Source: Spirochaetota bacterium (GTDB taxonomy: Bacteria; Spirochaetota; Leptospiria; Turneriellales; Turneriellaceae). From it: a stretch of 13,247 nucleotides of DNA. Within the stretch, counting starts at the first letter, position 1. Every line of letters starts with the position of its first letter. The notes under the pieces were generated by a model. The model did not search any database and was not told the DNA's origin. It saw only the letters and a program-made list of their open reading frames with translations. The DNA lies in the NCBI GenBank assembly GCA_029561505.1, contig JAKQXK010000438.1, positions 1 through 13,247 on the forward strand, written 5' to 3'. Below, piece by piece: positions 3,956 to 13,188 of this stretch. Position numbers and translations under genes: made by a program.

Positions 3956-6916
3956 TTACTGCAGAACGTTGCCACTCTTGTCGATACGGCGCAACACAAC
4001 ATCAGGGTTCTTCTTATCGTTAGTCTGAAATGCGAGCGCACACACGCCTCGGTTATTCACGCGCATTTCGACGAGCTGCATGCCCCCGGCAGGAAAAAGT
4101 CGCGTGAACAGTCGATGCCCGCCCGCGTCGACGCACATTACGTAGACATCGGTATTCTTGCCAGGCGTTAAATGCGGCTGAGCGTGCAGCGCACCCGTGG
4201 TGCGGCCGGCAGCGCAGACATAGGCATCGCTTGCTGCAAGGCGCTCGATTGTCAGATTCTCATCACCCGCGAAATTGCGCGTCCAGCGGGTGCTGCCCTC
4301 GGTGTCTTCGGCGGCAATCGAAATACCGCGGCGGTATTGAAGACGGGTGAAATCCCCCGCGTAATACCTTGTGCCCGAAGGTGCCAGTGCCAGCTGCCTG
4401 AACGAACGCGCTTTCGTGAGGCGCCCAGTTGACTTACCGGTTTCAAAACTGAACATCTGGTTCTGGGCTGTAAGTGCAATGCTGCCATCGCCCATCACCT
4501 GCATTTCGCTGATACGTTCACCGCGGTTCAATTCACTCTGCTCAAGCGCACCGGTTGCGCTGAGTTTTCTCAGGCTGCGCCGGCCCGAAAACTCAACGTA
4601 AGCATAGACATTGCCGCCTGCATCGACCGCAAGCGCATGCGCCTGAGTTCGCTGGCAGCTGCCGGCTTTGCCCCAGGTATTCTCCCATCTGGGTGTAAGC
4701 GCGCTGTCGAGTTGCATGACGTAAACAACGAGATTCTGCCCGGTTTTGCATTTTTTGTCGGCAGCACCGTCGATTTCGCCGGGCCTGACACCCGCAATGA
4801 TAACGCCTTCGCCCGCTGCGGCCATCGCCTGCACCGAGGGAAATTCTTGCTGCGCTCGTACCCGCAGGTCTTCGTCGAGCCTGTAAATACGTGTTGCACT
4901 ACCCTGCGCTGCCGCCGCAAAAAAGTCGCGGTCAGCGACGCCGAGCCGCAACAGCCGATCGGGCTCGAGACTGGTGAGCATCGGCTCAATGCCGATCGCG
5001 TAGGCATTCGCGGGCAGATTCGCGGCCGCGATTTTCTGCCAGCCGACGCTGCCTGCAAGATCGTATGCAGTGCGCCCGGCGCCGTTTCGCACCGTCACCG
5101 AAGCGCCAAAATTTACGAGCGATTCAAATAGCTGCAGCGCTGCTTCGAGATCGGGATTATTGTCATTCGAAGCGGCGATGTGCAGCGCGGTATCACCCGC
5201 GTTATTCTGAAAATCACTGTGCTGGTAACCCAGCACAAGGTAGAGCCACTCTTGAAGCTCTTGATTCTTCAGCTTGTTGTAGCGACTGCTCAGTGCGAGT
5301 TTATGCAATAGGGTATTACCCTGAAGATCTTTGGCCTCACTCTGCGCCCCGGCTTTCAGAAAAGCATCGGCCATCTTGAAGTTCTTGCGGTTCAACGCGT
5401 ATGAAAGCGCGTTGTTGCCGAATCGGTTCGCCGTGTTCAGATTGGCACCGGCCTTTTTCAGCACTGTCAGAAGCTCGACCGTCTTGCCATTGACTGCACC
5501 CGATTTGGCGATTTCCATCATCAGCGGTGTACTGCGGCCTTCGTCGCTCAGCGACACACCAAGGGCGATGAGCGCGCGGGTGGTCGCCGGGTCTTGCCTG
5601 CCGATCGCGACCGAGAGCGGGGTTTCACCGAGATTGTTCTTGAGTTCAAAGTTAGCACCGCGGTCTTTCAGCAGCTTTAGAATTCCTGTGCCGCCGGCGC
5701 GCGCGGCAAAATGCGCAGCGGTATTGCCGCTGTCACCCGTTACGTTGATGTCGGCAAATTTCGCTGCGACCAGCTTCATGGTGCCGAGCTGGTTTCTTTG
5801 CGCAGTAGTGTGGATAACGAGGTTTCCGGTTTTGTCGCGCGTATTAAAGTCGGCCCCTTTCTCGAGCAGGTCATTTACCTGTGTATAGCGGCCCGATTCA
5901 GATTGTTCAAAGAGCATTGGCCTGCCGCTTGCCGAAAGAGTATTCGGGTTCGCGCCGGCGTCGAGCAGAGCGCGAAACAGCTTTGCGCGCGCCGGGGTCA
6001 GTCGCGCCATGATATTCTGGTGCGAAATCTGCATCAAAGTCTTGCCAGACGCATCGCGCGTTTCGACTGAAAGTCCGCGCGCCAGCAGAGCTGGCAACAG
6101 ATCGGGAACCGTCTGTTTAACCACCATGACCAATGGTGAATTACCCTCACTGTCGGCGACATTCAGGTTTACCGAATTTTCGATGAGAAATCTGGCAAAG
6201 GTTACCCGCTCTTTTTTGATGGCTTCAACGACGAGCGCAAGCCCAGACTTTTCGTGCGCCATATTCAGGTTGGCGCCAGCCTTTGCCAGGGCCTCGAAAA
6301 GCTTCAACTGATTCGTGTCGTAGGCGATGCCCAACGCGTGGTTCGGCGCCGCATTGACATTTGCCCCCGCCGAAATCAGCGCGTTTGCGTAATCGCTTCG
6401 GCGCAGCTGCACCGCGCGCGCCAATGGTGCGAAGTTTTCAGCGTCAGGCCGGTTCACATCGGCGCCGGCCTTTAGCAGGGCTTCGAACACTGGTTTCTTA
6501 CCGAGTTGCACTGCGAGCATGAACGCACTCTGCCCTTTCGTGTTCACCCTATTCTTGTCGATGCCCTTTTCGAGCGCCGCAGTGAGCACCGGCAAGGGAC
6601 TTCGCGCCTTCAGAAGCGCGTGCAGGCACGAGTTGCCGTCGGCATCGGTGCTCGCTAAATCGGCCTGTTGCTCCATTAGCCACTGAAATGCAGGCAGATT
6701 GCCCGCCTCACAGACAAAGTGCAATGCGCGTTTACCCTTTTCGTCGGCCGCATTCACATCGACCTGCCCGAGTGCGTGTGCCTTTTGCGCCGCCTTCAGG
6801 TTGACCCGCCGCATTGCGGCGAGAAAGTCTTCTTGCGGCCCCGCCACAAGGGGCGAACACAGCATGGCTATCGCCGCCACGCTGCGATAGCTTTGCTGCA
6901 ATACGCGCCTGATCAT
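3956..6916 (-). CDS. Large exported ankyrin-repeat protein with C-terminal propeller-like domain
   Basis: This 986-residue protein begins with a probable signal peptide (residues 1-26, core VAAIAMLCSPLVAG). From about 30 to 635 runs a nearly continuous array of some 16 to 18 diverged ankyrin repeats, visible through recurring GADVN, GANLN, GANPN and GADFN turns and 'G.T.LH.A' starts (for example GDTALHIAA at 574-582). From about 640 to 986 the sequence changes to short beta-type units such as GNVYAYVEFSG (768-778) and TDVYVMCVDAGGHRL (922-936), resembling SBBP/PQQ-like propeller blades. Ankyrin arrays bind proteins, and the signal peptide suggests a periplasmic or surface partner. Its ATG shares ATGA with the stop of the upstream M23 peptidase gene, so the two are probably co-translated. 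The gene ends one base from the OmpA stop. Binding partner unknown. Confidence 0.85.
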   Translation of the reverse strand: MIRRVLQQSYRSVAAIAMLCSPLVAGPQEDFLAAMRRVNLKAAQKAHALGQVDVNAADEKGKRALHFVCEAGNLPAFQWLMEQQADLASTDADGNSCLHALLKARSPLPVLTAALEKGIDKNRVNTKGQSAFMLAVQLGKKPVFEALLKAGADVNRPDAENFAPLARAVQLRRSDYANALISAGANVNAAPNHALGIAYDTNQLKLFEALAKAGANLNMAHEKSGLALVVEAIKKERVTFARFLIENSVNLNVADSEGNSPLVMVVKQTVPDLLPALLARGLSVETRDASGKTLMQISHQNIMARLTPARAKLFRALLDAGANPNTLSASGRPMLFEQSESGRYTQVNDLLEKGADFNTRDKTGNLVIHTTAQRNQLGTMKLVAAKFADINVTGDSGNTAAHFAARAGGTGILKLLKDRGANFELKNNLGETPLSVAIGRQDPATTRALIALGVSLSDEGRSTPLMMEIAKSGAVNGKTVELLTVLKKAGANLNTANRFGNNALSYALNRKNFKMADAFLKAGAQSEAKDLQGNTLLHKLALSSRYNKLKNQELQEWLYLVLGYQHSDFQNNAGDTALHIAASNDNNPDLEAALQLFESLVNFGASVTVRNGAGRTAYDLAGSVGWQKIAAANLPANAYAIGIEPMLTSLEPDRLLRLGVADRDFFAAAAQGSATRIYRLDEDLRVRAQQEFPSVQAMAAAGEGVIIAGVRPGEIDGAADKKCKTGQNLVVYVMQLDSALTPRWENTWGKAGSCQRTQAHALAVDAGGNVYAYVEFSGRRSLRKLSATGALEQSELNRGERISEMQVMGDGSIALTAQNQMFSFETGKSTGRLTKARSFRQLALAPSGTRYYAGDFTRLQYRRGISIAAEDTEGSTRWTRNFAGDENLTIERLAASDAYVCAAGRTTGALHAQPHLTPGKNTDVYVMCVDAGGHRLFTRLFPAGGMQLVEMRVNNRGVCALAFQTNDKKNPDVVLRRIDKSGNVLQ

Positions 6917-8205
6917 TGGTCTTGAACCTCGGGAAAGGGAACATATAAATCAGGGTTAAAGTGTGTGTCGTTGTAATTCGTTCGCACTTCGAAATGCAGG
7001 TGGTTGCCCGTCGAATTGCCCGTCGTGCCGACTTCACCGATCACTTCGCCCGCCGCGACGCGGTCACCTGCCTGCTTGTAGCGCTTACGCTGGTGCGCGT
7101 AATAAGAAACGAGACCATTTTCATGGCGCACAACGGTCAAGATGCCATAACCCGTGTGGTCATTCTGTACTTCGACGACGCCGTCTGCCGCCGCATAGAT
7201 TGGTGTACCGCCTGAGGCTGCAAGATCGACACCCGTATGAAATGACGGCACCTTGCTAATCGGGTGCGTGCGGCCCCCATATTTGCTGGTGCGCCGGTAG
7301 CTTGAAGGGTCAAGTGGCAATATGAAAGGTTTGTCGAGGCTGTCTGAGCTCATTGTATAGCCCGAGCTCGAGAGAAATCCCCCGAAGACCCAGCCGTCAA
7401 TGCCGTCTGCCTGTACGCGCACCCAAACGGATCTCAGGCCCGCCAGACTTTCCCAGCTCGCCTGCCGCTCGACAATTCTTACGCTCTTTCCCTGGCGAAT
7501 GCGGCCTATCACCGTACCGTACGCGCTGGGCTCGTCGCGTACACTGAGATACGGGGGCTTCACGGTTTTTGAATTGCCACTCGAAATGTGGTTCGGGTCT
7601 TCTTTAGGTTCGTTTGCCGGGCCGACGCTGTCTGCGCGAGGTTCATCGCCGAGGTAACCCGAAAACACCCATCCTTCGACTTCACCCAGCGCACGCACCC
7701 GCGCCCATTTGGCTGCCCGCCCATCAATATAATCGTCGTTGTCTGACATCTCAAGCACAATAACTTCGGTATTTCGAACCAGCATGCCGGCCTCGGGTGC
7801 ACCACGGTCAGGCCTCGTTCGCACGTAGAGTGCGTCAGCCGTTACGTACGATTTTTTGTCGATACTGCGAAATGCCACCGCGACTTCGCCTTCAGGCTGA
7901 ACCTCTTTCGCAAGCATGCCGAGCCGCACGAAACCTTCGCGGCCGTCGCTGGCCCTGATACGCACCCAGGCCTGCGACAAATCGGTTTGCTCGAGCGCTT
8001 CTTCGGTATAAACGACCGTTACCACCTCGTTGATCGCGAGATTTTTGAGGGGTTTGCCAGATTTTTCAGAAGGGGCTGAGAGCATTGGCGTGTATTGCTT
8101 CACGTATGCAGGGCCGGCAGCGGCAAGAGGCAGAGTCGCCAGCAACAAAACCGCCACCATTTGCAACGCGCCGCGCGGCGGTTTTTTTAGAATACGGTTG
8201 GGCAT
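6913..8205 (-). CDS. Exported SH3b-domain M23 metallopeptidase (LytM-like)
   Basis: The 430-residue product has a basic start and a hydrophobic signal (MVAVLLLATLPLAAAG at 16-31). Three SH3b-like modules follow, at roughly 32-105, 120-190 and 215-280; each ends in a 'WV(R)..DG..GWV..G(F/Y)L'-type strand. The peptidase domain occupies about 295-425. Zinc and catalytic residues are all present: GGRTHP (310-315), H323-T-G-V-D327, H371 in YYAH, and HLH with H404 (402-404). M23 enzymes cut peptide cross-bridges of peptidoglycan, and SH3b modules usually bind the wall. The intact ligands favour an active endopeptidase over an EnvC/NlpD-type activator. No clear Shine-Dalgarno precedes the ATG; an internal ATG at codon 16 would still leave a signal peptide. 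It is the first gene of a two-gene unit with the ankyrin protein. Confidence 0.9.
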   Translation of the reverse strand: MPNRILKKPPRGALQMVAVLLLATLPLAAAGPAYVKQYTPMLSAPSEKSGKPLKNLAINEVVTVVYTEEALEQTDLSQAWVRIRASDGREGFVRLGMLAKEVQPEGEVAVAFRSIDKKSYVTADALYVRTRPDRGAPEAGMLVRNTEVIVLEMSDNDDYIDGRAAKWARVRALGEVEGWVFSGYLGDEPRADSVGPANEPKEDPNHISSGNSKTVKPPYLSVRDEPSAYGTVIGRIRQGKSVRIVERQASWESLAGLRSVWVRVQADGIDGWVFGGFLSSSGYTMSSDSLDKPFILPLDPSSYRRTSKYGGRTHPISKVPSFHTGVDLAASGGTPIYAAADGVVEVQNDHTGYGILTVVRHENGLVSYYAHQRKRYKQAGDRVAAGEVIGEVGTTGNSTGNHLHFEVRTNYNDTHFNPDLYVPFPEVQDQ

Positions 8206-8248: not shown

Positions 8249-8276
8249 GGAACTTTTTATTATATTATGGGTCAGC
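8249..8276 (+). promoter_or_regulatory. ECF sigma (sigma-E-like) promoter
   Basis: GGAACTT (8249-8255), a 16-base AT-rich spacer and TCAGC (8272-8276) match the sigma-E/ECF consensus GGAACTT-N16-TCTGA closely. Transcription would begin near 8281-8283 and run through the cluster that encodes the ECF sigma factor itself. This is the usual positive autoregulation of such operons. The assignment is from consensus only; the cognate sigma factor is inferred from position. Confidence 0.6.
8259..8264 (-). promoter_or_regulatory. Candidate -10 for the M23/ankyrin unit
   Basis: Read on the minus strand this is a perfect TATAAT, 54 bases upstream of the M23 ATG. The -35 region 17-18 bases further upstream is poor. 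It overlaps the spacer of the ECF-type promoter on the other strand, so the two divergent promoters would compete for polymerase. Confidence 0.35.
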
Positions 8277-8283
8277 AGGGTTA

Positions 8284-8307
8284 TCAGGGGCAGCGAATCA
8301 CCCCTGA
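8284..8307 (+). promoter_or_regulatory. 5'-leader hairpin abutting the ribosome binding site
   Basis: TCAGGGG (8284-8290) and CCCCTGA (8301-8307) form a perfect 7-bp stem with a 10-base loop. The right arm ends on the first A of the AAGGAG Shine-Dalgarno (8307-8312). If transcription starts near 8281-8283, the hairpin is at the extreme 5' end of the mRNA. It could stabilise the message or affect ribosome access. It could also be a DNA operator, since it is palindromic. No T-run follows, so it is not a terminator. Confidence 0.45.
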
Positions 8308-8325
8308 AGGAGACTCAGAGATACC

Positions 8326-8778
8326 ATGAAATATACGACAAATATAATGCGCCGTGTGCTGATTGTGCTCGGCGTGATGACGGTGCTGACCGCGGGTGCC
8401 TGCCGTAACTGGAAGCACAAGTCACCCGAAGAGCGCGCCGAATGGGTAACCAAACGCATCACCAAAGAGCTCGACCTCAACGATGGCCAGAAACAGACCC
8501 TGACGGCGATCAAGAATGATCTGCTGGCCAAACACGCGGCCGAAAAATCAGAACGCGATGCCCAGCTGAAGCAGTTTACCGAACTGATGCGCAAAGACAC
8601 AGTCGATGCCGCAAAACTGGCCGATCTCAAGAAAAAGCACCAGCAGATGCGTGACCGCGCCGAAGAGTATTTTCTCACCAAATTGGTCGAGTTTCATAAG
8701 GTTCTTACACCAGAGCAGCGCAACAAATCAGCCGACCTGCTGCAAAAGCACATGAGCCGCTTCATGGGAGAGAAATAG
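8326..8778 (+). CDS. Spy/CpxP/CnrX-like exported protein (LTxxQ type), probable envelope sensor
   Basis: The 150-residue product has a signal segment (residues 9-25) ending LTAGAC, a relaxed lipobox-like sequence with Cys26, so it may be a lipoprotein. The mature part is highly charged and helical. It has the two hallmarks of the Spy/CpxP/heavy-metal-resistance superfamily: LDLNDGQKQTL (49-59, an LTxxQ variant) and a perfect LTPEQ (127-131). Spy and CpxP are periplasmic chaperones or stress regulators, and CnrX is a metal sensor controlling an ECF sigma factor. Five His lie in the mature part (31, 70, 105, 124, 142) and could bind metal, but this is not shown. AAGGAG at 8307-8312 is 13 bases from the ATG, a long spacing. 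The ECF sigma gene follows 13 bases after the stop, which favours a sensor role in signalling. Confidence 0.8.
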   Translation: MKYTTNIMRRVLIVLGVMTVLTAGACRNWKHKSPEERAEWVTKRITKELDLNDGQKQTLTAIKNDLLAKHAAEKSERDAQLKQFTELMRKDTVDAAKLADLKKKHQQMRDRAEEYFLTKLVEFHKVLTPEQRNKSADLLQKHMSRFMGEK

Positions 8779-8791
8779 ATCACTCGAACCA

Positions 8792-9286
8792 ATGGAATTT
8801 TCGCAGATCATCGAAGAGACGAGGCGACCGGTACTTGCGGCAATACGCAGGTACCTCGACTCGCGCTTTGCATACGCAATCGATGACGTTGCGCAAGAGG
8901 TCTATCTCAGGGCGTACAAGGCCCTCACCAAAAACAGGCTAGAAGACGATACGAAACTCAGGTCATACCTGTATACGATCGCCAAGAACGAGTCACTGCG
9001 CATGAATGCGCGTTGCAGGCGCGAAGAGATGAAGGCAGAAAAGTTTCTTGTGGCGAAGCGCGAAAAGCTGCGCCACAGCGAGGCACTGCCACCCGAAACT
9101 TTCGACGAACGGGACGCACTCGTCGAGGCGCTGGCCACGTTACCAGAACACTACGCGAAGGTGGTCGAGCTGACCCTGCTCGGGTTCACCGCGCGTGAAA
9201 TTGTCGACAAACTTGAGATCAGACCTGGCACGGTAAAGTCGCGACTTTCGCGGGGGCTGACGATTCTGAGACAGAAACTTGCATGA
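8792..9286 (+). CDS. ECF-family RNA polymerase sigma factor
   Basis: At 164 residues this has the two-domain size of ECF sigma factors. Region 2 covers about 10-75, with the core-binding DDVAQEVYLRAYKAL (31-45) and the -10-recognition helix KLRSYLYTIAKNESL (55-69). A charged linker follows (75-108). Region 4 covers about 109-162, with ALATLPEHYAKVVELTLLG (113-131) and the -35-binding helix-turn-helix IRPGTVKSRLSRGLTILRQKL (143-163). It redirects RNA polymerase to stress promoters. The gene lies between a periplasmic LTxxQ protein and a tiny membrane protein, and an ECF-type promoter heads the cluster. This suggests an autoregulated, membrane-signalled switch. No strong Shine-Dalgarno precedes the ATG, so translation may be coupled to the upstream gene. 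Confidence 0.93.
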   Translation: MEFSQIIEETRRPVLAAIRRYLDSRFAYAIDDVAQEVYLRAYKALTKNRLEDDTKLRSYLYTIAKNESLRMNARCRREEMKAEKFLVAKREKLRHSEALPPETFDERDALVEALATLPEHYAKVVELTLLGFTAREIVDKLEIRPGTVKSRLSRGLTILRQKLA

Positions 9287-9570
9287 GGCAAAGAACCATG
9301 AAGAAAAAAACAAATAATGCGATAGCGCAGGCAATAGCAGAAAGACTACACAGCGACAGTTGGGCGGGCGACCTCAGCGCCCGTGTCGAAGATTCACGCC
9401 GCAACCGCAGCCGCAACAGAAACCGGTTTTTGGTGGCGATGGCGTTTTTTGCGATCGCAGGTTTTCTGACGACTGACGAACTTCTCGACGACGATAACGA
9501 CGCCGAAAATATGTACGCAATGGTTGAACAGGTAACTTTGGTACCCTTTGCGGGAAGAATTGTTGAATAA
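9283..9570 (+). CDS. Small single-span membrane protein, candidate anti-sigma factor
   Basis: This 95-residue protein (90 if the second ATG at 9298 is used) has a basic, helical N-terminus of about 48 residues ending in an Arg/Asn-rich stretch (39-48). One hydrophobic segment follows (FLVAMAFFAIAGFLTT, 49-64), then a short acidic tail (DELLDDDNDAEN, 65-76) and about 20 more residues. The positive-inside rule places the N-terminus in the cytoplasm. No zinc-binding HxxxCxxC motif of classical ZAS anti-sigma factors is present. The size, topology and position, overlapping the sigma stop by ATGA, resemble CnrY, the small membrane anti-sigma factor of CnrH. I saw no clear sequence match, so the role is inferred from context. 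The dioxygenase gene overlaps its 3' end. Confidence 0.7.
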   Translation: MRQRTMKKKTNNAIAQAIAERLHSDSWAGDLSARVEDSRRNRSRNRNRFLVAMAFFAIAGFLTTDELLDDDNDAENMYAMVEQVTLVPFAGRIVE

Positions 9571-10360
9571 ACCCAACCAGCGATTGCCCGCGTTTTTCAT
9601 AGGCCACGGCTCGCCGATGAACGCGCTGGAGCAAAACGAATTTACTGACGCTTGGCGTGATGCCGCTCACGGGCTGCCTCCCGTCAGAGCAATACTCATG
9701 GTGTCGGCGCACTGGCTGACTCCGGGTACGCAGGTCACGGCCATGGAAAAGCCGCAGACTATACATGACTTTGGTGGCTTTCCGAAAGAGCTGTTCGCAG
9801 TCGATTACCCGGCTGCAGGTGCGCCGGGTATCGCCGAAGAAATTATCGCGCAGTTAAACGGCGTGGCTTCGGTGCGTAAGAATTTCAACTGGGGTCTCGA
9901 CCATGGGGCATGGAGCATTCTCGTGCACATGTTTCCCGAAGCGAACGTGCCGGTGGTGCAGCTGAGCATAGACGCCGACGCGACACCTGAACACTATTTT
10001 GCTCTCGGCCGCGCGCTGCAACCGTTGCGCGAAAATGGCATATTAATCATCGGCAGCGGCAATATTGTGCACAATCTCGCGCGCGTTGAGTGGCCGCGCC
10101 TCAACGAACGCAACTACGCGGCCGACTGGGCGCGTGAAGCGATGGCATTTTCGGGGCAACTTCTGGCTAAGAAAGACTGGCAGAGACTCATCGATTTTCA
10201 GAAACTGCCGCAGACTATGCATATCGCAATCAACAGCGGCGAACATTATTTTCCCTTATTGTATGTGCTGGGCTGTGCCTTTGAAGACGAAAACGTTACG
10301 CTCTTTAATGATGTCGCAGTCGGCGGAGCGCTCTCGATGACAAGCGTGCGGCTCGGTTAA
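9563..10360 (+). CDS. Class III extradiol dioxygenase, DODA/YgiD type
   Basis: The sequence closely follows the 4,5-DOPA extradiol dioxygenase family (E. coli YgiD): GHGSPMNAL, VSAHW, TIHDFGGFP, WGLDHGAWSILVHMFP, GSGNIVHNL and EHYFPLLYVLG, ending in SM.SVRLG. Metal ligands from this start are His15, His50, His170 and His228. The family cleaves catechol rings such as L-DOPA using Fe(II) or Zn(II); the natural substrate here is unknown. Length, about 265 residues, is normal. Several TTG codons could be the start. I chose 9563 because GGGAAG (9552-9557) lies five bases upstream; TTG at 9548 would add five residues. It overlaps the small membrane-protein gene by 8 bases and is followed nine bases later by the DUF482 gene, so it looks co-transcribed with the ECF module. 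Confidence 0.9.
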   Translation: MNKPNQRLPAFFIGHGSPMNALEQNEFTDAWRDAAHGLPPVRAILMVSAHWLTPGTQVTAMEKPQTIHDFGGFPKELFAVDYPAAGAPGIAEEIIAQLNGVASVRKNFNWGLDHGAWSILVHMFPEANVPVVQLSIDADATPEHYFALGRALQPLRENGILIIGSGNIVHNLARVEWPRLNERNYAADWAREAMAFSGQLLAKKDWQRLIDFQKLPQTMHIAINSGEHYFPLLYVLGCAFEDENVTLFNDVAVGGALSMTSVRLG

Positions 10361-10369
10361 GAGCCTTCT

Positions 10370-11533
10370 GTGAACCTGCAGGTTATCGATTCAGTTGCGG
10401 CCATTGACGCCGTTCGCTGGAACGCCCTCGTAGAACCGGGCAATCCCTTCATGCGCCATGAGTTCTTGCATGCGCTTGAAGAGACGGCTTGCATCGGTAA
10501 GGGGCTTGCGTGGCAACCGAAGTTTATTGTGGCAACCGAGGGCCAGCATTACCGCGGTGCCGTTGCCGCTTTTGAACGCAGCGATTCTTACGGCGAATAT
10601 ATCTTCGATTGGGCTTGGGCCAACGCGTACGCTGAAGCGCGCCTGCCGTATTACCCGAAAATCACAGTTGCAGCCCCCTTTACCCCCGCGTCTGGGCGCA
10701 GAATGCTTCTCGCCGACCAGAACGATGATATCACTTTCGAAGCACTCGTCACGGGGCTCGAAGGCAGCGCACTTGAACTGCACACATCGGGAATTCACCT
10801 GTTATGCACGACCCGTAGTGAACAGAAACAGCTTTCGCAATCGGGGTTCTTGCCACGGCTGACGCACCAGTACCACTGGCTGAACCGCGACTACCGTTCA
10901 TTCGACGAGTACCTCGCCGTGCTGCGCGCACACCGGCGCAAAGAAATCAAGCGCGAGCGGCGAAAATGCGCCGAACTGGGCCTTGAAATTAAAATTTTGA
11001 CAAAATCTCAGATCGAACCACGCCACATCGACGCCATGTATGTTTTCTACGCGGCCACGTATGCGCGTAAGTGGGGTTCGCCGTACCTCAACCGCGAGAC
11101 GTATCATGCACTTCTGCGGCGCATGCGCGACAGCATCGTGCTGGTAATGGCTTTCGATCAGGGGCGCGAAGTGGCCGGTTCGATCGCGTTTCACAGCGCA
11201 GACCGGCTCTTTGGCCGCTATTGGGGAGCAAGCGGCAACTTTCCTTATCTGCACTTCGAATTGTGCTTCTACAGCCTCATAGAATATGCAATCGGGAACA
11301 AGATACATATATTCGAGGCCGGCGCTCAGGGTGAACACAAATTTCAGCGCGGCTTCACCGCAATGCCCGTTTATAGTTCTCACAAACTCTTCGACGAAGG
11401 CGGTGCCGACGCGATCGCGCGTTACCTGCGGCAAGAACGCCGGGCAACGGCGCGCGCCCTGATGGCTTACCGGTCACATTCGCCGATCAAGGGCGATCAG
11501 CCATATATTCCAGAGCTCGAAGACGACGGCTGA
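10370..11533 (+). CDS. FemAB/GNAT-like protein of the DUF482 (COG3146) family
   Basis: The 387-residue protein carries the family's conserved blocks in order: NPFMRHEFLHALEE (25-38), SYGEYIFDWAWANAY (73-87), YYPKITVAAPFTPASGRRML (94-113), QYHWLNRDYRSFDEYL (167-182), YARKWGSPYL (231-240), FGRYWG (281-286), LHFELCFYS (294-302) and FEAGAQGEHKFQRGF (315-329). Databases label this family 'peptidoglycan biosynthesis protein' through distant similarity to FemAB aminoacyl transferases with a double GNAT fold. The real substrate has not, to my knowledge, been established. No signal peptide is seen, so it is cytoplasmic. The start is GTG at 10370, nine bases after the dioxygenase stop. It is the last gene of the five-gene cluster. 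Confidence 0.87.
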   Translation: MNLQVIDSVAAIDAVRWNALVEPGNPFMRHEFLHALEETACIGKGLAWQPKFIVATEGQHYRGAVAAFERSDSYGEYIFDWAWANAYAEARLPYYPKITVAAPFTPASGRRMLLADQNDDITFEALVTGLEGSALELHTSGIHLLCTTRSEQKQLSQSGFLPRLTHQYHWLNRDYRSFDEYLAVLRAHRRKEIKRERRKCAELGLEIKILTKSQIEPRHIDAMYVFYAATYARKWGSPYLNRETYHALLRRMRDSIVLVMAFDQGREVAGSIAFHSADRLFGRYWGASGNFPYLHFELCFYSLIEYAIGNKIHIFEAGAQGEHKFQRGFTAMPVYSSHKLFDEGGADAIARYLRQERRATARALMAYRSHSPIKGDQPYIPELEDDG

Positions 11534-11562: not shown

Positions 11563-13188
11563 TTATTCGAAACTACCTTTGCCGATAAATTCACGCAGAA
11601 TCGAAGTCGACGGTACATCATCGGGTGCAATAGCCACAAACTGGTCGAGCAATTGCCGCAGCCGAAATGCAGTTGCGTAAGCCTCATGATTGCCTGGCAC
11701 CTCGAGCAGGTAGCGGTCTGCAAAGACCTTGAGCACGGCCAGCTCGTAGACGAGCGAAGTGTCGAAAACAGCGTCAGCCTGCCCGACAAAAGGAAAAATG
11801 TATTGCTGCTCCCCGGCGCGCACGTCTCCCCAACGGCGAATATTGTCGTGAGTCGCAAAACCTCTTTGGCGGCGGTCGCGAACGATGCGGCGTATTAGCC
11901 TCAGATCAGACGGATTTATATGGCTCACGAGGTCGATCGGCAGGGTGAGCAATGGCTGAATGAAAATGCGAAAAACATTCTCTGATGGCAGCACCCGTTC
12001 AAGCAGCGCCGGATTAAGGCCGTGTATGCCTTCAAGCACCAGCAGCTTGCCCCGGGTCATGTGAATGCGGCGCCCGCCCGCCGGGTCGCAGATTCCGGTG
12101 CGAAAGTCATATTTGGCCGTAACCTGCTCTTTGCCTGCCAAGAGTGCTCCGAGATGCTGCGCTAGGAGTTCAAGGTTCAGCGAACCGAGAGTTTCAAAAT
12201 CTTTTTCGCCTTTGTGATTCAATGGCGCGTCGTCGCGATTGCGGTAATAGTCGTCGAGCGAGAGACCTTCGGGCACAAAACCGTTGATGCGCAGCTGAAT
12301 CGAAAGCCTGCGGATAAATGTTGTCTTGCCCGATGACGAAGGGCCGGCCACGCAGATGATCTGCGTATTGTGCCGCGCGGCAATTGTGTCGGCGAGCTGC
12401 GCCAGCCGCTTTTCGTGATAGCCCTCGGCGACACGAATCACCTCGCTTACACGACCATCGACGCAGGCCCGGTTGAGTTCACCGACGCTCGAAAGCCCGA
12501 ATGAGTGCAGCCATTGCCCGCTCTCTTCAGAAAGCTGAGCGAAGGGCTCAAAGCCGGGTGGCACTTCGGTATCCTCACCCGATAGCAGAACCAGCGAGTT
12601 TAAGCCGGCCTTGATGCGAAATTCACTAATGAGCCCTGCGTGCGGCAGCAGTGGCCCATTATAAAGGGCATAGATTCTTCCGCACGTTACTAATGGTGTC
12701 GTCAGTGAACGCGCTCCTTTCAAAAGCTGTACCGCATCACTCTGGTGGTGTTTTCGAAAATAGCTGAGTGCCTCATCGATGCTCCACCACTCTTGGCGAA
12801 AATCGGCCCGCTGTGCGATGAGCTCGCGAATGCGGCGCGTCAGTTTATCGGCAATCTCTTGCAGCGTATAGGGTACTTTGCCTTCGATGTGCATCCACTG
12901 TGCGCTGCCGACTGCAAAGCCGAGCTTCAGTTGCAGCGGCGGTGAAAAATCCTGCGCGGCCTCGACGATGAGCAATGCGAGCGAATGGCGCAAGACGCGT
13001 TCGCCCTCCCAATTTTCTGCAGTCAGCGGCTCAACGTGCACGTCAGAAAAAAGCTGCGCGTCGAGCGAAGTCACCCGGTGATCAACGAGTGCGGCGACGA
13101 CTGGCGAGTCTCCCATTTTATCGGGTAAAACTTCTGCCAGCACCGAACCCGTTTTAACTTCGGTTTCTGATTTGTCTTCCCGCGTCAT
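11563..13188 (-). CDS. Uridine-kinase-family nucleoside kinase with ThrRS-like N-terminal domains
   Basis: This 541-residue protein has three parts. Residues about 10-60 look like a TGS domain (VKTGSVLAEVL, PVVAALVDHRV). Residues about 61-230 resemble the second additional domain of threonyl-tRNA synthetase (RHSLALLIVEAAQDF at 67-81). Residues about 275-515 form a P-loop kinase of the uridine kinase/phosphoribulokinase type: Walker A GPSSSGKTTF (282-291), LDDYYRNRDD (311-320), DFETLGSLN (330-338), VLEGIHGLN (384-392) and RRIVRDRRQRGF (433-444). The enzyme probably phosphorylates a nucleoside with ATP or GTP. The domain set is known in spirochaetes and other bacteria, and the role of the ThrRS-like part is unclear. 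The frame stays open upstream to the window edge with only a weak Shine-Dalgarno before ATG 13188, so a longer N-terminus is possible. Confidence 0.87.
   Translation of the reverse strand: MTREDKSETEVKTGSVLAEVLPDKMGDSPVVAALVDHRVTSLDAQLFSDVHVEPLTAENWEGERVLRHSLALLIVEAAQDFSPPLQLKLGFAVGSAQWMHIEGKVPYTLQEIADKLTRRIRELIAQRADFRQEWWSIDEALSYFRKHHQSDAVQLLKGARSLTTPLVTCGRIYALYNGPLLPHAGLISEFRIKAGLNSLVLLSGEDTEVPPGFEPFAQLSEESGQWLHSFGLSSVGELNRACVDGRVSEVIRVAEGYHEKRLAQLADTIAARHNTQIICVAGPSSSGKTTFIRRLSIQLRINGFVPEGLSLDDYYRNRDDAPLNHKGEKDFETLGSLNLELLAQHLGALLAGKEQVTAKYDFRTGICDPAGGRRIHMTRGKLLVLEGIHGLNPALLERVLPSENVFRIFIQPLLTLPIDLVSHINPSDLRLIRRIVRDRRQRGFATHDNIRRWGDVRAGEQQYIFPFVGQADAVFDTSLVYELAVLKVFADRYLLEVPGNHEAYATAFRLRQLLDQFVAIAPDDVPSTSILREFIGKGSFE

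What the first reader, a model, noticed from the sequence alone, without database searches (positions are those of the whole stretch)
8249..9570. CnrYXH-like three-part ECF switch in a new order
Seen: a periplasmic LTxxQ-type protein, an ECF sigma factor and a 95-residue one-helix membrane protein are adjacent, with 13-base spacing then an ATGA overlap, behind an ECF-type promoter. Known: in Cupriavidus, CnrX (metal sensor), CnrH (ECF sigma) and CnrY (small membrane anti-sigma) form a signalling trio in the order Y-X-H. Inference: this is an analogous sensor/sigma/anti-sigma system in the order X-H-Y. No metal efflux genes (RND, CDF) are in view, so the signal may be envelope stress, or another metal or redox cue.
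Basis: partly seen in the sequence, partly recalled or inferred. Interest (0 to 1): 0.72.

Follow-up and report, generated by a model that had tools for sequence, protein, structure and literature searches.

The report
Three-gene envelope-stress switch in spirochaetes
Three neighbouring genes - a chaperone-like surface sensor, a gene switch (ECF sigma factor) and a tiny membrane protein that probably holds the switch off - form a conserved unit in Leptospira-related spirochaetes and a few other bacteria, and the switch is a close relative of one found in disease-causing Leptospira whose controller is not named in the papers found.

Summary
X (Spy/CpxP-fold LTXXQ protein), H (ECF sigma) and Y (one-helix membrane protein) form a conserved unit in the order X-H-Y: 38 of the 43 strongest H hits in 61 genomes have both partners, and 40 of 44 Y hits lie directly behind one. 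The first 29 relatives of a second scan all have Y; 0 of 51 other ECF loci do at E <= 0.01. GGAAC-N16..18-GGTC precedes 32 of 50 units (0.075 by shuffling).

"CnrYXH-like" holds as an analogy only: Y is unrelated in sequence to CnrY, X is nearest to Spy, and the window X has none of five CnrX metal-site residues.

The sigma clade contains L. interrogans LIC_10559 (ECF208), for which the papers found name no anti-sigma.

Most likely Y is an N-in/C-out anti-sigma; X pairs with Y's acidic tail; envelope damage or a toxicant frees H, which induces its own operon and probably other Spy-like genes. Binding, signal and direction of X's effect are inferred. New variant of a known kind; it may be partly described in ECF classification tables that I could not read.

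The parts
8249..8273 (+). ECF-type promoter of the unit: GGAAC (-35) N16 GGTC (-10)
   Evidence: Pattern match at G000:C451:8249-8273; GGAAC-N16..18-GGTC before 32 of 50 units, 0.075 expected in shuffles
8326..8778 (+). X: Spy/CpxP-fold (LTXXQ) extracytoplasmic protein, probable lipoprotein (Cys26, codon 8401-8403); LTPEQ at 8704-8718
   Evidence: Pfam LTXXQ 3.8e-10; profile match to Spy 1.5e-11; model pLDDT 88.2 with Spy/CpxP/CnrX as nearest folds; Cys after a hydrophobic stretch
8792..9286 (+). H: ECF sigma factor, same clade as L. interrogans LIC_10559 (ECF208s1)
   Evidence: Sigma70_r2 and r4_2; tree; LIC_10559 identified through published primers
9285..9288 (+). GAGG, probable ribosome-binding site, overlapping the H stop codon, 9 bases before ATG 9298
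   Evidence: Sequence; same layout in L002, L004, L005, L006
9298..9570 (+). Y: predicted one-helix N-in/C-out anti-sigma, 90 aa (95 aa if started at 9283)
   Evidence: Directly behind H in 40 of the 43 strongest H hits; N-terminal I..RL.S..W...IA..V motif, W in 48 of 50; acidic tail in 49 of 50
9430..9486 (+). membrane helix of Y
   Evidence: Kyte-Doolittle window of 19, mean 1.72
9487..9567 (+). extracytoplasmic acidic tail of Y (27 aa, net charge -6), proposed docking site for X
   Evidence: Charges; tail length follows X anchoring type; docking itself is inferred
9563..10360 (+). 4,5-DOPA extradiol dioxygenase-like (LigB) gene, overlapping the end of Y; probable operon partner in this genus only (start codon TTG 9563 chosen by me)
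   Evidence: NCBIfam PRK10628 280.4 bits, cut-off 233; follows the unit in 5 of 6 same-genus relatives and in none of the other 14 stretches examined
10370..11533 (+). FemAB-like/GNAT protein, next gene; operon membership uncertain
   Evidence: Pfam FemAB_like 2.3e-130; found behind DODA in L111, L114, L115

Best explanation
An autoregulated transmembrane ECF switch. Shown here: the conserved X-H-Y gene unit; the conserved promoter in front of it; one clade of sigma factors; the Spy-like sequence and predicted fold of X; the topology pattern of Y. Inferred: (1) Y's cytosolic 40-50 residues (motif I..RL.S..W...IA..V) hold H inactive at the membrane. (2) X, anchored or free outside the cytoplasmic membrane, pairs with Y's acidic tail and tells Y the state of the envelope. 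(3) When X is drawn away by misfolded proteins, or bound by a toxicant, Y lets H go or is degraded. (4) H-RNA polymerase transcribes GGAAC-N16..18-GGTC promoters: its own operon (so more X resets the switch), separate Spy-like genes and, in some lineages, pump genes. Step likelihoods: sigma/anti-sigma pair about 0.85; X-Y partnership about 0.65; protein-damage signal rather than a specific metal about 0.5.
Confidence: 0.72

Rival explanations
1. Metal sensor in the strict CnrX sense: X binds a transition metal and changes shape, Y releases H, and the output is metal efflux.
Against: The five CnrX metal-site residues read T, T, K, K, F in the window, and 0 of 47 X have His near all three His positions. 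Sequence is nearer to Spy/CpxP. 2 of 51 control ECF loci also have pump genes nearby. Another metal site, for example in the Met/His-rich N-termini of some soluble X, is not excluded.
Confidence: 0.2
2. X is only an output of the switch (a chaperone gene in the operon), and Y alone senses, for example through regulated proteolysis started at its C-terminal tail.
For: Two lineages have H-Y without X at the locus; some stand-alone X genes carry the same promoter; part of the Y tails end in an amphipathic D..I...L..R-like stretch, which could be a protease handle.
Against: X is first gene of the unit in 47 of 50 non-redundant loci; its anchoring type follows Y tail length after correction for ancestry; an X-Y pair occurs without H.
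Confidence: 0.25
3. Y is not an anti-sigma but a small structural or co-activating membrane protein, and H is controlled by expression only.
For: No match to known anti-sigma families above cut-off; structure job uninformative.
Against: Nearly exclusive coupling to this sigma clade (40 of 44 Y hits; 0 of 51 other ECFs); a conserved cytosolic motif followed by one membrane helix; the anti-sigma position usual in ECF operons (recalled).
Confidence: 0.08

Closest known systems
CnrYXH / NccYXH of Cupriavidus (Co/Ni response)
   Same: Three genes: an extracytoplasmic helical sensor of the same superfold, an ECF sigma, a 95-aa one-helix membrane anti-sigma; efflux pump genes downstream in Cnr and in 5 of 49 loci here.
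   Different: Order X-H-Y instead of Y-X-H; Y unrelated in sequence; H in another clade; X closer to Spy/CpxP, without CnrX metal-site residues and often a probable lipoprotein; no pump in the window.
Spy / CpxP (LTXXQ periplasmic chaperones and Cpx modulator)
   Same: X belongs to this superfamily by Pfam, sequence profile and predicted fold; CpxP is likewise made by the pathway it dampens (recalled).
   Different: CpxP works with the kinase CpxA (recalled); here the gene sits with an ECF sigma and a one-helix protein. X misses the curated Spy and CpxP cut-offs.
LIC_10559 (ECF208s1) of Leptospira interrogans
   Same: Its sigma lies inside the clade of trio sigmas, 43% identical to the window's and 57-58% to those of L009 and L012.
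   Different: Its neighbours could not be read here. LIC10558, numbered next to it, is listed as a 17.3-kDa conserved hypothetical (table passage of PMC5979558), which fits X in size only.
RpoE8 - hypothetical - periplasmic heavy metal sensor operon of Azospirillum (PMC12826043, passages)
   Different: Named in the order sigma - hypothetical - sensor; relation not tested.
RpoE-RseA-RseB of E. coli
   Same: One-helix anti-sigma tuned by an extracytoplasmic protein, envelope-stress output (recalled).
   Different: RseA has an ASDI domain (PMC7406223, passages); Y is far shorter and matches no anti-sigma profile above cut-off; RseB is not a Spy-like fold (recalled).

Membership tests
CnrYXH system | Adjacent sensor, ECF sigma and small one-TM protein | tested here: met
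   conserved in relatives
CnrYXH system | Gene order Y-X-H | tested here: not met
   Order X-H-Y here; Y-X-H seen on pMOL28
CnrYXH system | Y homologous to CnrY | tested here: not met
   hhalign probability 1.9% over 16 columns; CnrY not among 13 PDB sequences at E <= 10
CnrYXH system | CnrX metal site (H42, H46, E63, H119, M123) | tested here: not met
   T, T, K, K, F in the window; 0 of 47 X have His near all three His positions; 10 of 47 have H at 119, 4 have M at 123. Met123 is named in PMC7689651 (passages); the other positions are recalled, and CnrX does carry H, H, E, H there
CnrYXH system | X of the CnrX superfold | tested here: met
CnrYXH system | Y binds and inhibits H | not testable with these tools
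   Structure job pTM 0.41, no interface read-out
Spy/CpxP (LTXXQ) superfamily | LTXXQ profile above gathering score | tested here: met
   40.8 bits against 24.3; 27 of 28 X at E <= 0.001
Spy/CpxP (LTXXQ) superfamily | Curated Spy or CpxP equivalog cut-off | tested here: not met
   36.8 of 148 bits (CpxP family protein PRK12750) and 28.7 of 174 bits (Spy)
Spy/CpxP (LTXXQ) superfamily | Chaperone activity | not testable with these tools
   needs protein
ECF208 sigma group | Groups with a classified ECF208 member to the exclusion of other ECFs | tested here: met
   50 trio sigmas + 7 Leptospira sigmas including LIC_10559 form one group, support 1.0, apart from 51 other ECFs and CnrH
ECF208 sigma group | Score against the ECF208 model of the ECF Hub | not testable with these tools
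   model not held
Class I anti-sigma (ASDI, RseA/zinc type) | Anti-sigma domain profile or Hx3Cx2C motif | tested here: inconclusive
   3 of 28 Y reach E <= 0.01 with NF052375, best 0.00028, the window's not among them; in 61 genomes none over its cut-off; no Cys in the window Y
Class II anti-sigma (CnrY/NepR type) | Two short helices wrapping sigma2 and sigma4 | tested here: inconclusive
   Y of L049 modelled as a helix 193-207 and a long helix from 210 on, without a defined placement

The most novel reading that the evidence does not exclude
Y's acidic, C-terminal extracytoplasmic tail is a built-in client of the Spy-like protein X. X's occupancy by misfolded envelope proteins is the signal, so a chaperone of the Spy/CpxP fold directly gates an ECF sigma factor through a new anti-sigma family. 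The same module controls LIC_10559 in pathogenic Leptospira and occurs in MAGs titled Spirochaetes, Firestonebacteria, Myxococcota and Deltaproteobacteria.
Probability: 0.33. Interest if true: 0.78.

Novelty: new variant of a known kind. Interest (0 to 1): 0.57.

Why it matters
[quoted passage not shown] It adds a small anti-sigma-like family without a Pfam model. It shows a Spy/CpxP-fold protein wired to an ECF sigma in an order (X-H-Y) different from Cnr, with testable promoters and candidate targets.

Tried and rejected
Rejected: membership in CnrYXH (order, Y and metal-site tests not met).

Rejected: DODA (LigB) as a defining part. It follows the unit in 5 of 6 same-genus relatives (L111-L115, not L116) and in none of the other 14 stretches examined.

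No help: looser promoter scans. GGAACN16-17GGTCT gave 56 sites in 8 genomes against 102 in the reversed control; GGAACYTT-N13/14-GGTC gave 24 in 13 genomes against 16.

No help: NF052375 anti-sigma family in 61 genomes, none over cut-off. Rfam: no match at gathering score in the window.

Not found: any paper on this trio. Searches were. The main ECF re-classification paper was not among the 20 of 24 papers listed, and no supplements could be read, so the ECF208 gene context may already be described there or on the ECF Hub.

Not possible: reading the neighbours of LIC_10559. No locus bears a Leptospira species name in its title, and the genomes behind genome search are unnamed.

Papers: passages only of PMC7406223, PMC7689651, PMC4598750, PMC8103513, PMC10144590, PMC4758666, PMC5979558 and PMC12826043; passages and the whole of section 3.3 of PMC12655853; all others as search listings.

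Full report
WHAT IS THERE. The window lies in a Turneriella-like genome: the closest relatives of X and Y on a 4,384,015-base contig, the length of G004's main contig, are named Turneriella parva in the databases. X (8326-8778), H (8792-9286) and Y are adjacent on one strand. X carries LTXXQ and Metal_resist, H the two ECF sigma regions, Y no family above cut-off. The 95-aa, ATGA-overlapping reading of Y is probably a start mis-call: a GAGG overlapping the sigma stop precedes ATG 9298 by 9 bases, the layout repeats in L002, L004, L005 and L006, and database forms are 90 aa.

CONSERVATION. The sigma was searched in 61 genomes, and Y and X profiles in the same 61. Of 43 H, 40 have Y behind, 40 have X before and 38 have both, in 34 genomes. 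Of 44 Y, 40 lie behind one of these H. The other four are one X-Y pair without sigma (G001:C142) and three weak hits (E 0.002-0.006, two with stops inside). The five H lacking a partner are G014 and G016 (no X), G031:C11 and G034:C1 (no Y) and G039:C113 (neither).

SECOND SET. The first 29 listed all have Y directly behind at E < 0.001, and 26 have X before (L042 and L049 lack it, L045 is cut by the contig end). None of the remaining 51 ECF loci has X or Y at E <= 0.01 within 1.5 kb on the same strand; the best was a Y-profile hit at 0.049. Titles of the 29 include Spirochaetes, Spirochaetia, Leptospiraceae, Candidatus Firestonebacteria, Myxococcota and Deltaproteobacteria MAGs. The non-redundant set used below is 50 loci: 50 H, 50 Y, 47 X.

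ONE SIGMA CLADE, WITH LEPTOSPIRA INSIDE. A FastTree of 109 sequences puts all 50 trio sigmas and seven Leptospira sigmas in one group (support 1.0), apart from 51 other ECFs and CnrH. L. interrogans P0254 is LIC_10559: the primers printed in PMC10144590 (passages) encode its first and last residues, and both are 181 aa. It is filed as ECF208s1 in PMC12655853 (section 3.3). The smallest clade with all seven Leptospira sigmas also holds trio-bearing L009, L010, L012 and L013 (support 0.928); LIC_10559 is 57-58% identical to L009 and L012 and 43% to the window. ECF208 occurs in two papers of the library; in the parts I read neither names an anti-sigma for LIC_10559. LIC10558, numbered next to it, is a 17.3-kDa hypothetical in a table of PMC5979558; the window X is 17.55 kDa. 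That is a lead only.

PROMOTER AND TARGETS. GGAAC-N16..18-GGTC occurs within 160 bp upstream of X (or of H where X is missing) in 32 of 50 loci, against 0.075 expected in 200 mononucleotide shuffles. Of the 18 misses, four (L021, L039, L041, L056) have a form one base off, and L037 and L045 are cut by contig ends. The strict form GGAACCTT-N13/14-GGTCTWA has 12 sites in 48 class genomes and 3 with the pattern reversed. Seven sites stand before the unit or H, two before stand-alone X genes (G031:C70, G034:C49), one before a secreted EF-hand protein (G012:C164), one 97 bp before a TetR-type gene and one before no clear gene. I examined 20 of the 40 X hits that are not next to a listed H: three have the exact promoter by script, one of them (L200) inside an over-long start, and a fourth (L201, G007:C63) is seen. 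In the window's own genome a second GGAACYTT-type site (C305) precedes a 264-aa secreted protein, and the same boxes with a different spacer precede its relative in G004; Pfam gives both only a sub-threshold hit. Three genomes of one genus carry such a site before an ABC ATPase, whose true start was not settled. The looser scans over all genomes show little or no excess over controls (24 against 16; 56 against 102), so only the unit's own promoter is firmly established and the rest are candidates.

PUMPS. Pump genes lie on the same strand downstream in L047 (TolC-type, HlyD-type, ABC ATPase), L051 (TolC-type, HlyD-type, cut by the contig end), L038 (TolC-type, HlyD-type, after a gap), L052 (HlyD-type, MacB permease, ATPase) and L056 (TolC-type, AcrB-type): 5 of 49 loci examined, against 2 of 51 control ECF loci. 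The 49 include duplicates of the same unit and unequal flanks. No pump lies in the window.

Y. N-terminal part of 33-55 residues, one membrane helix, outer tail net negative in 49 of 50. The hydropathy rule (mean > 1.6) finds the helix in 46 of 50; the other four peak at 1.53-1.60. The N-terminal motif I..RL.S..W...IA..V has W in 48 of 50. Y is unrelated in sequence to CnrY, and of 28 members only one reaches E <= 0.001 with any Pfam model, PrgH.

LINK BETWEEN X AND Y. Tails of Y are shorter where X is lipoprotein-like by that rule (median 33.5 against 56.5; 24 and 22 loci, truncated L037 dropped; Mann-Whitney p = 1e-5). Independent contrasts on the sigma tree keep the trend (r = -0.44, n = 45, p = 0.002), with six changes of X type. 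X is net positive in 44 of 47, and X charge and tail charge run weakly against each other (Spearman -0.31, p = 0.035). Together with the X-Y pair without sigma this argues for contact between X and Y outside the membrane, but it is indirect.

MECHANISM AND RIVALS. The best reading is an autoregulated Y-held sigma, tuned by X, answering envelope damage or a toxicant. The metal rival in the strict CnrX sense is weakened, but metals in general are not excluded. 'X is output only' remains possible because two lineages lack X at the locus. Known analogues place the same three roles in other orders: Y-X-H in Cnr (seen on pMOL28) and, by the order in which its genes are named, H-Y-X in Azospirillum RpoE8 (PMC12826043, passages).

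LIMITS. No experiment; most genomes unnamed; Leptospira neighbourhoods unread; ECF Hub tables unread; the sigma-Y structure job did not resolve an interface.

Noticed in passing
L213 (G001:C142), minus strand: An X-Y pair without a sigma gene between them, with a near-match of the unit's promoter upstream; Y ends TDQIINASFVIR, like part of its relatives.
   Followed up: partly
L039:4966-6516 and L041:4660-6348: A large protein with LTXXQ-like stretches (three X-profile domains each) lies behind the unit in Firestonebacteria MAGs, followed in L039 by a metallophosphatase-like gene.
   Followed up: partly
window 3956-6916, minus strand: 986-aa ankyrin-repeat protein next to an M23 peptidase with SH3 domains (6913-8205, minus). 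Both lie between the OmpA-like gene and the unit in L111 and L114, and next to the unit in L112; in L113 and L116 the unit follows the OmpA-like gene without them.
   Followed up: partly
L140:1592-2386 (G000:C305) and L137:642-1442 (G004): Related ~265-aa secreted proteins of unknown family behind the same promoter boxes in two species.
   Followed up: partly
L015/L042 and L020/L049: Two related genomes have H-Y without X; the strict promoter stands before H in G014, and X-like genes lie elsewhere in both genomes without the promoter in the 200 bp checked.
   Followed up: partly
window 11563-13188, minus strand: 541-aa protein with a C-terminal uridine-kinase-like domain (PRK 4.8e-18) and an N-terminal part of about 270 residues without a family.
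   Followed up: no
G039:C113: An ECF gene without X or Y beside it is followed by a weak match to a general anti-sigma profile (NF052375, E 5.6e-4, below cut-off).
   Followed up: no
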